A DNA stretch of 40,761 nucleotides from Clostridia bacterium (GTDB lineage: Bacteria > Bacillota > Clostridia > TANB77 > CAG-465). The stretch spans positions 1-40,761 of the forward strand of contig JAQUWH010000010.1 of NCBI GenBank assembly GCA_028692955.1, in the 5' to 3' direction. A program made the translations under genes and the position numbers. Every line of letters starts with the position of its first letter. Position 1 is the stretch's first letter. A model generated the notes under the pieces. The model made no database searches. It was not told where the DNA came from and saw nothing but the letters and a program-made list of their open reading frames with translations. Positions 6,571 through 33,449 of this stretch are shown piece after piece.

Positions 6571-8124
6571 TTAAAAACCAGTTTTTGGCAGTTCTTTTTT
6601 CATACTTTTGTTATACAGTGTAATTTTATTAGTAGAATTATGCTCTAAAATATTAATCTCATATATCGTATTATCTAAAATATAATAATCATTTGTTTTT
6701 GTTTCTTTGATATAATAATTACCTATTTCTAATCTACCTGTATTGGCACATCCATTTTTATCTGTTAATACTTTCTCTATTAAATTCATCTCTTGATTAT
6801 ATATTTCAAACTCACAATCTTTAAGCGGTGTATTTTCTTTAACGTTGTTATAGGGATTATAATCAAGGGATTTTTTTACTATTTGAATTGTTCCAGTTGA
6901 TTTCTCATTTTCTATGATTACCTCATTTTTTTCGTTATATTTTAATATCCATTCTATTTTATTATGATCTGGATTAATAAAATATTGATTTGGAGCACTA
7001 ATTTCTTCTATTATAATTTTATCGCCACCAGTTAATCCAAGTTCCTTTTGATAATCCAGTGATATAATCCCATATTCATCAGTAACATATTCTCCTAATT
7101 CATTTCCAAGTTCATCATATAATTTAAATGTTACATTTGCAATAGGGACATTTTCATTTCCTTTTTCTACTTTTTTTATAATGAATTGATTTTCAATATA
7201 GCTAATATTAAAATCTTTACTAACGACTCTGTCTTCTCTCACATTTTTAATTAAAACTAAATCCTGCATACCAGTAATTTGAGCAACTCCAAACATAAGA
7301 CTTGCATTTCTTGCTTCGTAATCTAATGATATTGTTACAGAGGTATCTTTTGTAATATCCTCTCTTGGTACTAATATCGTAAAATCTTTAATACCATACA
7401 TGGCATCTGGAAATATTTGCATATTGGTATTAGTATCTAATAGCACATATTTGTCTAGTCCATGAACTGTTAAAGTATCTTTATATACATTTTCCATGTT
7501 ATAATCTAATTTTACTCTCACGGTATAAAAATTCGGATTATCATCGTATATTTTTGATTCATCCACTTGTATTTTTATCAATCCATTTGTATTACTTTTG
7601 TTTTCTAGTCCATTATGATATATATTTTTAATTGCTTTGACCACATTTTCATATTCTGGTTTTGTAGCAGTAATTTCATTTAAATCTAAATGTGATAAAT
7701 AAGCCCAAATAGCAAATTGTGTACAATAAGAAGCTTGCGCATCACTCGGCAATCCCAATTCATATGGCGTAATATATGGATATCCATTTAATAATATACT
7801 GCTTGCAATTTCATCTTCTAACGCTTGTTGTACATTTACGTAATATTCATCATTGGTCTCTGGCCCATTTGCCCCTAAATTAACGCAATAAGCGGGCATT
7901 CTTTCATTATTACTGTTTAAGTAATAATATTCATAGTTAATCTGTATTTTATCTTTATATTTGATATAATGCTCTGTATCTTCTGCACAATATATTCTAT
8001 ACTTTCCTAAATCAGTTTCATCTATTTCAGATGCAAATATCGAAAAGCTATTCATAGCAATAAGCATAATAGCTATCAATGCTGTTATTTTTTTAAATTG
8101 ATTTCTTGTTTTTTGTTTTTTCAA
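6571..8124 (-). CDS. Thioester-domain surface adhesin with Cna-B domains and terminal LPKTGF
   Basis: Predicted cell-wall adhesin able to bind host amines covalently. Residues 1-32 form a signal peptide (KKITALIAIMLIAMNSF). Residues about 45-175 look like a class of thioester domain: Cys80 in AYCVNLG and Gln136 in YCTQFAIW (the TQxAIW motif) would form the internal thioester. Two SpaA/Cna-B Ig-like modules follow, about 320-410 (VPIANVTFKLYDELGNELGE) and 413-510 (TPLKDCEFEIYN). The protein ends KKELPKTGF-stop, a sortase motif without the usual membrane segment and basic tail. Its start overlaps the sortase stop by 4 bases, so the two are coupled. The thioester call rests on motifs only. Confidence 0.82.
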   Translation of the reverse strand: MKKQKTRNQFKKITALIAIMLIAMNSFSIFASEIDETDLGKYRIYCAEDTEHYIKYKDKIQINYEYYYLNSNNERMPAYCVNLGANGPETNDEYYVNVQQALEDEIASSILLNGYPYITPYELGLPSDAQASYCTQFAIWAYLSHLDLNEITATKPEYENVVKAIKNIYHNGLENKSNTNGLIKIQVDESKIYDDNPNFYTVRVKLDYNMENVYKDTLTVHGLDKYVLLDTNTNMQIFPDAMYGIKDFTILVPREDITKDTSVTISLDYEARNASLMFGVAQITGMQDLVLIKNVREDRVVSKDFNISYIENQFIIKKVEKGNENVPIANVTFKLYDELGNELGEYVTDEYGIISLDYQKELGLTGGDKIIIEEISAPNQYFINPDHNKIEWILKYNEKNEVIIENEKSTGTIQIVKKSLDYNPYNNVKENTPLKDCEFEIYNQEMNLIEKVLTDKNGCANTGRLEIGNYYIKETKTNDYYILDNTIYEINILEHNSTNKITLYNKSMKKELPKTGF

Positions 8125-8738
8125 TTGTTTCCTCCTTTATTTTTAATTGCTCTTACACATAATCTTTTATCTGGTCTATTATTAATGCAAGTTATACACG
8201 TAATCCACTCTTCTTCTGTATTTTTCAAATAGCTCCAATCACTATTTAAAATTTCATCAGAGAATACCACGATATACGCACTTATTTTTTCTTTAGTTCT
8301 AATGATCATTTCGTCTCCTGCTGTCAACATCCATAATTGATTAAAGTAATCAACCGTATCGCTCCTATTATGTGCTGCTAAACAAATATTCCCATACGAT
8401 ATATTACTATGTGAAAATAATCCAATCGCTCTTGATAACACAAGACTAGTAGTGCCACATTCAATTGGTGCGTTATATAATCCTATTTTTGGTATACTCA
8501 AATAACCAATTATAGAATCATTAAATTGACGAATTGAAATATGATTTGGAATTGCCCCAGAATTTAGTGGATTTAAATATTCTTTTGAATCAATAACTTT
8601 TTTTGAAAGAATGAAATTATTTTGATGAGATAAATTTGCTTCTTTACTTAATAAAAAGAAATAACAGATTAAGAAAAAAATAGAAATTATAATAAAAAGA
8701 GCTAATATATATTTTAAATAAATATTCTTTTTTGACAT
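8121..8738 (-). CDS. Sortase family cysteine transpeptidase
   Basis: Membrane transpeptidase that cleaves LPXTG-like signals and attaches the protein to the wall or to another subunit. The 205 residues have an N-terminal membrane anchor (about 8-30) and an extracellular sortase fold: GYLSIPKIGLYNAPIECG, catalytic His123 in CLAAHN, Cys184 in the TCITC (TLxTC-type) motif, and Arg192 in RLCVRA. Layout and size resemble class D or small class C sortases; I cannot settle the class. The ribosome site GAGGTGAG is 2-5 bases before the ATG. It lies directly upstream of, and overlaps, the thioester adhesin gene, its probable substrate. Confidence 0.9.
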   Translation of the reverse strand: MSKKNIYLKYILALFIIISIFFLICYFFLLSKEANLSHQNNFILSKKVIDSKEYLNPLNSGAIPNHISIRQFNDSIIGYLSIPKIGLYNAPIECGTTSLVLSRAIGLFSHSNISYGNICLAAHNRSDTVDYFNQLWMLTAGDEMIIRTKEKISAYIVVFSDEILNSDWSYLKNTEEEWITCITCINNRPDKRLCVRAIKNKGGNN

Positions 8739-31643: not shown

Positions 31644-33434
31644 TTAAAGTGCCAACCCCACGGCAAGAACGGGACGGAACCCGAAACTGACGTCACTGCC
31701 ACCGTAGGTCGAAGTAGCCGCAAACACACCCGCATAAGAACCGACGCCGAAATGGCTACCACGTAACAGGCAAGGTAGAGAGGCATAACCGACTAGCATG
31801 TAATCTGCATTCCATCCTCTGGTATACTGACTGCCACTTGCTGAATCTCTTGATGTATCTTGTAACCATGCCCAGTCTTCTGTTCCTGAGGTATATTTTC
31901 CATAATAACTATTTCCATTTGATGTTTCCCATAGTGCATCACCTTTTTTGCTTGCAAAATTTGCATACGTTGCTGCTGCTAATCTTTTTCTAATGATATT
32001 TTGTGACTCCGCATTTCCTGAATTCCAAAGATTTACTCCTCCTTGTCCGTAATACGCTCCGCCTTCTTTTTCTTCGTCTCCTGGTTCATATACATCATAA
32101 TATTTCACATATTCTGTTTTTACTTTGTTACTTTGTACATGCTCTGCTTTCATATATGTTCCTATATATGTATTTCCATTATTTAATACAGATGCTACAT
32201 ATTCATATGCTCCTCCTGACATATCATATACCCCAGTTATATTTCCTGTTGTACTTGCTTTTACTCCCTTAGTTGTGTTATATTTTGCTAAATTTGCATT
32301 TCCTTCTACTAATCCGCCACTATCTTTGCTTGCTCCTGCATATCCTGTTTTTAGCTTATATGATCCAGCTGTCCAATCTCCGTATGGGTTATTCCATGGT
32401 TCTTGTCCATATTGACTTTGGCATAGGTATGCTACTGCTCCCCATTCTATATTCTTCATTTGATGTGTATCTATGTTAGTGCTAGTTCCCACACTTCCAT
32501 TACTACTTGTCATATTCATACTTACTGTTTGCATGTTTCCTGTATGAATATTTCTCCAACTATATACATCTGGTAATACTCTTACTTGTAAGGCTGTAGT
32601 ATTTCCTCCTCCAAAATTTGCTCCAGATGAGTCTACTTTATTTGAATCAGAACTACTTGCTTCATACTTTGCTACCCATATTCCTGAAAGTTGTGTATCT
32701 CCAAACGTAAATGCTGGATGTATTGTATATCCTTCTATACTACTTCCATCACTTGCTACATTACTTGTTCCACTTAAAAACTTGATGTTAATTTTCTCTG
32801 CTGTTGTTGTGTGAGGATTATCTATTTTGTATGCATATCTTGGTATCCATACCCAATACGCTTTATTTCCATTATTATTTGTATAGATATTTGCCCATTT
32901 CTTTTGTGCATAGTCATACCAGCTTGAATCTTTATCTGCTGCTGTTATTTCCATCTCTGTTTCTACGTTACTAGCATCCCATTTTACCACTTTTGTTGTA
33001 GCGCTTGGTAAATACGATAGATTTGGTTTGTTATACTTTAATCCACCTACTTCTACTGTACTTGTTTTTCCTATAATCTCCTCTACTATTTGTGATCTTT
33101 TTGTATCTGATCCTGTATATACAAGTTTTCCTTGTTCTACTTTTAATTCACTATCATATTGAGTCACTCCTGGTACATAATCCGATACTTTCCCATTCAT
33201 ACCTGTTATATCGAATGTTCCGTCGTTTTTAGCAAGTTCATTTAGAGCGTATAGATTTAATTGCTCATTAATACTTGCTACATCACTTCTAAAAGTTGCT
33301 TCTTTTGCATTCTCTACTGGATTATTGTTATTTAATGTTAGTATTACTGCAGCTGCCAATATAATCACTACGATTATCGTTATAACTAGCGTGATAAGAC
33401 TAATACCTCTCTTTACATTTCCCTTTGCTTTCAC
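31644..33434 (-). CDS. Pseudopilin-anchored C-type-lectin/FGE-like protein, probable DGR target
   Basis: 596 residues. The N-terminus is a type III (prepilin-like) signal, VKRGISLITLVITIIVVIILAAAVILTL, with Thr instead of the usual Glu at +5. A pilin-like helix follows to about residue 75. The body (about 185-596) has the formylglycine-generating-enzyme/C-type-lectin pattern: AYWVWIPRYAYKI, WVAKYEAS, IEWGAVAYLCQSQYG, GVYDMSGGAYEYVASV. The last 50 residues hold a hypervariable-type segment within the framework LLRG-GSYAGVFA-FGFRPVLAV. Read as the binding module of a surface lectin diversified by a retroelement. An ATG at 33449 overlaps the ribosome site GGAGG; the GTG at 33434 sits 8 bases from it and is preferred. 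No enzymatic role is implied. Confidence 0.85.
   Translation of the reverse strand: MKAKGNVKRGISLITLVITIIVVIILAAAVILTLNNNNPVENAKEATFRSDVASINEQLNLYALNELAKNDGTFDITGMNGKVSDYVPGVTQYDSELKVEQGKLVYTGSDTKRSQIVEEIIGKTSTVEVGGLKYNKPNLSYLPSATTKVVKWDASNVETEMEITAADKDSSWYDYAQKKWANIYTNNNGNKAYWVWIPRYAYKIDNPHTTTAEKINIKFLSGTSNVASDGSSIEGYTIHPAFTFGDTQLSGIWVAKYEASSSDSNKVDSSGANFGGGNTTALQVRVLPDVYSWRNIHTGNMQTVSMNMTSSNGSVGTSTNIDTHQMKNIEWGAVAYLCQSQYGQEPWNNPYGDWTAGSYKLKTGYAGASKDSGGLVEGNANLAKYNTTKGVKASTTGNITGVYDMSGGAYEYVASVLNNGNTYIGTYMKAEHVQSNKVKTEYVKYYDVYEPGDEEKEGGAYYGQGGVNLWNSGNAESQNIIRKRLAAATYANFASKKGDALWETSNGNSYYGKYTSGTEDWAWLQDTSRDSASGSQYTRGWNADYMLVGYASLPCLLRGSHFGVGSYAGVFAATSTYGGSDVSFGFRPVLAVGLAL
31651..31800 (-). 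other. Putative DGR variable repeat (VR)
   Basis: Composition breaks sharply here: about 57% GC (86 of 150 by count) against about 30-35% around it, and only 14 A of 150 on the sense strand. In the two blocks SHFGVGSY and ATSTYGGSDVSF, 19 of 20 codons end in C or T (the exception is TCG), with many GGC, GTC, TTC, GAC and AGC codons this genome otherwise avoids. This is what repeated A-to-N change of AAC/AAT template codons gives. The last about 40 bases (GGGTTCCGTCCCG onward) are GC-rich and A-poor, like an IMH-type end of a VR. Confidence 0.75.
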
Positions 33435-33449
33435 TATCAATTCCTCCAT

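What the first reader, a model, noticed from the sequence alone, without database searches (positions are those of the whole stretch)
31651..31800. Variable-repeat signature of a diversity-generating retroelement at the 3' end of the lectin-like gene
Seen: a 150-base island of about 57% GC with only about 9% A on the sense strand, in AT-rich DNA. Codons at the presumed binding positions end in C or T in 19 of 20 cases. The framework RG-GxxAGVFA-GFRPVL is kept. Known: DGRs rewrite the last about 100-150 bases of C-type-lectin-fold target genes by changing adenines of AAY template codons to any base. Inferred: this is a DGR target, and repeated rounds have used up its adenines.
Basis: partly seen in the sequence, partly recalled or inferred. 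Interest (0 to 1): 0.92.

Follow-up and report, generated by a model that had tools for sequence, protein, structure and literature searches.

The report
Self-mutating surface-lectin gene, confirmed (DGR)
A small-genome bacterium with gut-type relatives carries a built-in mutation machine that rewrites the binding face of at least seven surface proteins, the window's gene among them, by copying one adenine-rich template with deliberate errors; the machine is of a known type but has unusual reach and an overlooked RNA part.

Summary
The variable repeat is window 31647-31786 (-), the last 140 coding bases of a 601-aa gene (31644-33449, -). Its template (TR), reverse transcriptase, Avd and MutS-like accessory genes lie on another contig of the same genome (C5). 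Window VR versus TR: 17 of 30 template adenines changed, 1 of 110 other bases changed (p = 6e-13). Six further genes fit the same TR; pooled, 108/210 A changed versus 29/770 other bases. Six more paralogs lack a matching TR; two still carry the footprint of a second, missing template. The target is a type IV pilin N-terminus, 68% identical over 65 aa to a pilin of the genome's own pilus operon, joined to a C-type-lectin domain whose best structural match is the DGR protein TaqVP (Z 19.5). New here: a covarying ~150-nt RNA directly 3' of the TR resembles Rfam's unassigned RT-14 family and sits there in 39 of 47 related DGR loci; some relatives carry tandem arrays of 8-11 or more template units.

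The parts
31647..31786 (-). Variable repeat (VR), 140 bp, last coding bases before the stop codon; 17/30 TR-adenine positions changed, 1/110 other positions changed
31644..33449 (-). DGR target gene, 601 aa: type IV pilin-like N-terminus plus C-terminal C-type-lectin (FGE/TaqVP-like) domain
33219..33413 (-). Class III prepilin-like N-terminus (residues 13-77, KRG|ISLITLVITIIVVIILAAAV...), 68% identical to a pilin of the genome's own type IV pilus operon
   Evidence: profile hits to solved pilins
31650..33020 (-). Predicted C-type-lectin fold region (residues 144-600); TaqVP Z 19.5, TvpA (2y3c) 11.7, Mtd 9.8

Best explanation
Window 31647-31786 is a variable repeat, served in trans, of a multi-target diversity-generating retroelement. 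A template repeat on contig C5 is transcribed together with a conserved ~150-nt structured RNA immediately 3' of it. The DGR RT with Avd (and perhaps the MutS-domain protein) copies it into cDNA with random bases opposite template adenines. The cDNA replaces the 3' end of any of at least seven dispersed target genes. AAY codons in the template become NNY codons, so about 15 positions of a C-type-lectin domain are randomised without making stop codons. The lectin is carried on a type IV pilin N-terminus and so is most likely displayed on the cell surface or in the pilus, where variants bind different ligands. Shown: TR/VR adenine pattern, complete cassette, multiple targets, fold match, pilin N-terminus and pilus operon, RNA covariation. 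Inferred: present-day activity, joint transcription, surface display, ligand binding.
For: TR at C5:54358-54498 next to a cis target. Window VR: 17/30 A versus 1/110 non-A changed, p 6e-13. Seven VRs pooled: 108/210 A versus 29/770 other. RT with RVT_1, IGNYTSQ and YMDD, best solved relative 8ub7. Avd over NCBIfam and Pfam cut-offs, and MutS_I. Window and cis genes differ at 16% of third codon positions upstream but at 1 of 110 non-A VR positions, so the VR was overwritten recently relative to the age of the duplication. TaqVP Z 19.5, TvpA 11.7, Mtd 9.8. Pilin N-terminus and own T4P operon. Homologous RT loci with an A-biased TR/VR pair: 46 of 80 found, plus the own locus.
Against: No reads or second isolate were available, so present activity and within-species variation are not shown. 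A hairpin 3' of the VR is weak (z -1.4). None of 27 congeners has these target genes, so the variation could not be followed in close relatives. The pilin Glu5 is missing, though the genome's own operon pilins lack it too. The AlphaFold model is of medium confidence (mean pLDDT 69).
Confidence: 0.96

Rival explanations
1. Relict DGR: the VRs were written by this system in the past but it is no longer active.
For: Five VRs carry 4-7 non-A changes, and four of the six group-2 paralogs show heavy third-position divergence and no TR. The TR-RT spacing is about 0.9 kb longer than in most convergent relatives; a TfoX_C ORF and an ssNA-helicase RNA lie between.
Against: RT, Avd and MutS_I frames are intact. 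The cis VR has 0 and the window VR 1 non-A change, against ~16% third-position divergence upstream.
Confidence: 0.15
2. Ordinary diversifying selection or gene conversion among lectin paralogs, with no RT involved.
For: The targets are an expanded paralog family.
Against: Changes fall on template adenines (51% versus 3.8% elsewhere) and a template copy outside any target gene sits beside a DGR RT. Conversion between paralogs cannot give that asymmetry.
Confidence: 0.01
3. The GC island is foreign DNA (recent transfer), not a DGR product.
For: It is the most GC-rich 150 bases of the window.
Against: The same island recurs in seven genes and in the TR with the adenine pattern; the rest of each gene is AT-rich and shared.
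Confidence: 0.01

Closest known systems
Bordetella phage BPP-1 DGR (Brt/Avd/TR/mtd)
   Same: RT is homologous (best solved relative 8ub7; that this entry series is the BPP-1 complex is from my own knowledge); Avd; A-specific TR to VR; C-terminal VR in a C-type-lectin fold (Mtd Z 9.8).
   Different: On the chromosome contigs of a bacterium, with no exact match in viral contigs; at least seven targets in trans or cis; RT convergent with the TR; MutS_I accessory; pilin tether.
Treponema denticola TvpA and Thermus aquaticus TaqVP DGR variable proteins
   Same: C-type-lectin VR fold (TaqVP Z 19.5, TvpA 11.7). T. denticola is known, from my own knowledge, for several remote VRs.
   Different: Here the lectin is joined to the host's own pilin N-terminus.
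Multi-VR and inverted-RT (G5) DGR cassettes, PMC6642488
   Same: 28.6% of non-redundant DGRs have several VRs, and RT inversion is a known minority pattern.
   Different: Here convergence is concentrated in one clade of Clostridia loci, with a conserved RNA between TR and RT.
Rfam RT-14 RNA (RF02921)
   Same: Same structure, directly 3' of the TR.
   Different: Rfam names it only RT-14 RNA; a link to the DGR template transcript was not found in the papers available here (the original description was not held).

Membership tests
Diversity-generating retroelement | DGR-type reverse transcriptase | tested here: met
   RVT_1 1.7e-18; IGNYTSQ and YMDD motifs; best PDB relative 8ub7 E 6e-46
Diversity-generating retroelement | Template repeat near the RT, outside the target gene | tested here: met
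   C5:54358-54498, 1.16 kb from the RT gene
Diversity-generating retroelement | TR-VR differences confined to template adenines | tested here: met
   Window 17/30 A, 1/110 other; pooled 108/210 versus 29/770
Diversity-generating retroelement | VR at the C-terminus of a C-type-lectin-fold target | tested here: met
Diversity-generating retroelement | Accessory Avd | tested here: met
   NF033474 82.0 bits over cut-off 80; PF22296 72.4 over 40
Diversity-generating retroelement | IMH and hairpin 3' of the VR | tested here: inconclusive
   TR/VR homology ends at GCACTT, then TAA versus CGA; hairpin z -1.4
Diversity-generating retroelement | Mutagenic retrohoming shown in vivo | not testable with these tools
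   No reads, isolates or cultures available
Type IV pilin (N-terminal part of target) | Class III leader and hydrophobic N-terminal helix | tested here: met
   68% identity over 65 aa to a pilin-like protein beside pilB/pilT/pilC genes; profile hits to solved pilins
Type IV pilin (N-terminal part of target) | Glu at mature position 5 | tested here: not met
   Thr in the target; the genome's own operon pilins have Val
Rfam RT-14 RNA | Covariance-model score at or above gathering | tested here: not met
   Own copy 37.3 bits versus cut-off 48.1; six relatives' copies are above it

The most novel reading that the evidence does not exclude
Rfam's unassigned RT-14 RNA is the 3' structural module of the template transcript of a large clade of Firmicutes DGRs (the working counterpart of the spacer RNA in BPP-1). 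In some relatives the complete unit (leader, TR, RNA) is multiplied into tandem arrays of 8-11 or more non-identical templates served by one RT, with some VRs paired to individual templates and the templates themselves varying chiefly at adenines. If so, these bacteria keep a library of templates, and templates can be gained, diversified and lost. That would also account for the template-less group-2 genes in the window's own genome.
Probability: 0.75. Interest if true: 0.75.

Novelty: new member of a known kind. Interest (0 to 1): 0.6.

Why it matters
It is a clean case in which a DGR target was recognised from raw sequence and then shown to be one by finding its template elsewhere in the genome. 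A 1.25-Mb genome devotes at least 13 genes to lectins of this hypervariable type on a pilin scaffold, which points to surface recognition (host, diet, neighbours or phages) as a main concern of these uncultured Clostridia. The covarying RNA 3' of the template gives an assignable part for DGR biochemistry outside BPP-1, and the template arrays make template turnover testable.

Tried and rejected
Looking for a second template for the six group-2 paralogs: none by DNA match, and only one copy of the 3' RNA in the assembly; lost or in a gap. Phage origin: no exact match to the VR framework in viral contigs. Target genes in 27 congeners: none. Pfam on the window target: no family; weak FGE-sulfatase and N_methyl hits in some relatives, N_methyl over cut-off in two. 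Single-sequence folding of the own 3' RNA is not better than shuffles (z 0.23); the evidence for it is comparative. DNA hairpin after the VR: not significant. Rfam searches failed on size and were rerun smaller.

Full report
OBSERVATION. The island is real: on the sense (-) strand of 31651-31800, GC is 57.3% and A 9.3%, and no other 150-base window of the 40.8 kb reaches either value. It is the 3' end of a 601-aa gene at 31644-33449 (-).

TEMPLATE AND MACHINE. The window is contig C13 of a 1.25-Mb, 97.7%-complete genome that has one RVT_1 match, on C5. Next to it lie an Avd gene (NF033474 82.0 bits, above cut-off; PF22296) and a MutS domain I gene, in the order MutS_I, Avd, RT. MutS_I ('MSL', PF01624) is a recognised DGR accessory (PMC10053308). 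About 1.2 kb beyond the RT's 3' end, on the opposite strand, is a 140-bp template repeat reading RGSNFSNGSNAGVFAANSNNGNSNVNNGFRPVLAVGLAL, rich in AAY codons, just downstream of a cis target gene. The RT has IGNYTSQ and YMDD; its best solved relative is 8ub7 (E 6e-46).

TR VERSUS VR. The window VR (31647-31786) differs from the TR at 17 of 30 adenines and 1 of 110 other bases (p 6e-13). Seven VRs match the TR at 83-91% identity: C13 (window), C5 (cis), C16 (two), C18, C14, C20. Pooled, 108/210 adenines versus 29/770 other bases are changed, with A>G 52, A>T 37, A>C 19. The window and cis genes differ at 16% of third codon positions upstream of the VR, yet at only 1 of 110 non-A VR positions, as expected if both VRs were overwritten from one template long after the genes duplicated.

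GROUP-2 PARALOGS. Six more genes (C12 and five on C6) have the same architecture but a VR that does not fit this TR. C12 and C6a differ at 2 of 47 third positions in the VR against 22% upstream, the mark of a shared second template; C6b-e are diverged at all positions. No second template is in the assembly.

TARGET PROTEIN. Residues 13-77 are 68% identical to a pilin-like protein encoded beside pilB, pilT and pilC genes on C17 (the pilC name is mine, by sequence); a prepilin peptidase match is on C3. A profile of the window target and 18 targets from related loci hits solved pilins at the N-terminus and 5vf4 in the lectin part. The AlphaFold2 model (mean pLDDT 69, pTM 0.72) matches TaqVP (Z 19.5, 277 residues), TvpA (Z 11.7), formylglycine-generating enzymes and Mtd (Z 9.8). 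So the variable domain is a C-type lectin on a pilin stem. Neither the target nor the operon pilins have Glu5. Display on the surface or in the pilus is inference.

RELATIVES. RT homologues were taken from 80 related loci, mostly Clostridia and Bacilli MAGs, several from gut by their record titles. A repeat scan found an A-biased TR/VR pair in 47 of 81 loci, the own one included. Avd is present in 80 of 81 and the MutS-like gene in 53 of 81. The convergent TR/RT layout is concentrated in the clade that includes the window's genome; most others are co-directional. Targets in the convergent Clostridia often begin with a similar pilin-like helix; two relatives (L072, L080) pass Pfam's N_methyl cut-off.

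RNA 3' OF THE TEMPLATE. Rfam's RT-14 RNA matches 27 bp beyond the TR in the own genome (37.3 bits, below the gathering score of 48.1) and above it in six relatives. A model from seven sequences (22 pairs, 18 with two-sided changes) finds 95 copies in 81 loci, and in 39 of 47 loci with a known TR it starts within 120 nt of the TR's 3' end, on the TR's strand. 89.3% of pair cells are standard versus at most 49.2% when partners are slid (the alignment was fitted to the structure). I infer it is the 3' part of the template transcript.

TEMPLATE ARRAYS. L053, L076 and L073 carry 8, 11 and at least 11 such RNAs in tandem, in L053 and L076 each preceded by its own TR. In L076, 27 of 37 A-majority TR columns vary against 33 of 112 others (RNA part: 28/67 versus 34/91). 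Some VRs fit one particular unit: L157 with TR484 (1 non-A mismatch, next best 11), L153 with TR2345 (3, next 8), the L053 cis VR with TR6600 (2, next 11); most other VRs fit none well.

VERDICT. The finding is a true DGR target: a new member of a known kind. The RNA assignment and the template arrays are the less expected parts and need experiments.

Noticed in passing
L076:638-4531 (+), L053:3345-7595 (-), L073:42-7268 (+): Tandem arrays of 8-11 or more template units (TR plus RT-14-like RNA) beside one DGR RT; TR variation is enriched at adenines and some VRs fit one unit only.
   Followed up: partly
L002:6526-6678 (+), i.e. G000:C5:54525-54677: Structured RNA directly 3' of the template repeat, related to Rfam RT-14 (RF02921); conserved next to the TR across the related DGR loci.
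   Followed up: yes
G000 C6:63.5-66 kb and 102.7-108 kb, C12:8.5-10.3 kb: Six paralogous pilin-lectin genes with no matching template; C12 and C6a carry the footprint of a second, missing template.
   Followed up: partly
L002:6946-6995 (+) and L002:7160-7399 (+): An Rfam ssNA-helicase RNA (43.1 bits, above cut-off) and a TfoX_C-domain ORF lie between TR and RT; most convergent relatives have the TR about 0.9 kb nearer the RT.
   Followed up: no
G000 C12, C14, C16, C18, C20 contig ends: Several contigs end at or near a target gene, so the assembly seems to break at this gene family and the true number of targets may be higher.
   Followed up: no
window 6571-8738 (-): A surface-protein-like ORF ending in LPKTGF lies next to a sortase-like ORF, beside a polysaccharide-synthesis cluster (about 10.2-26 kb).
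   Followed up: no
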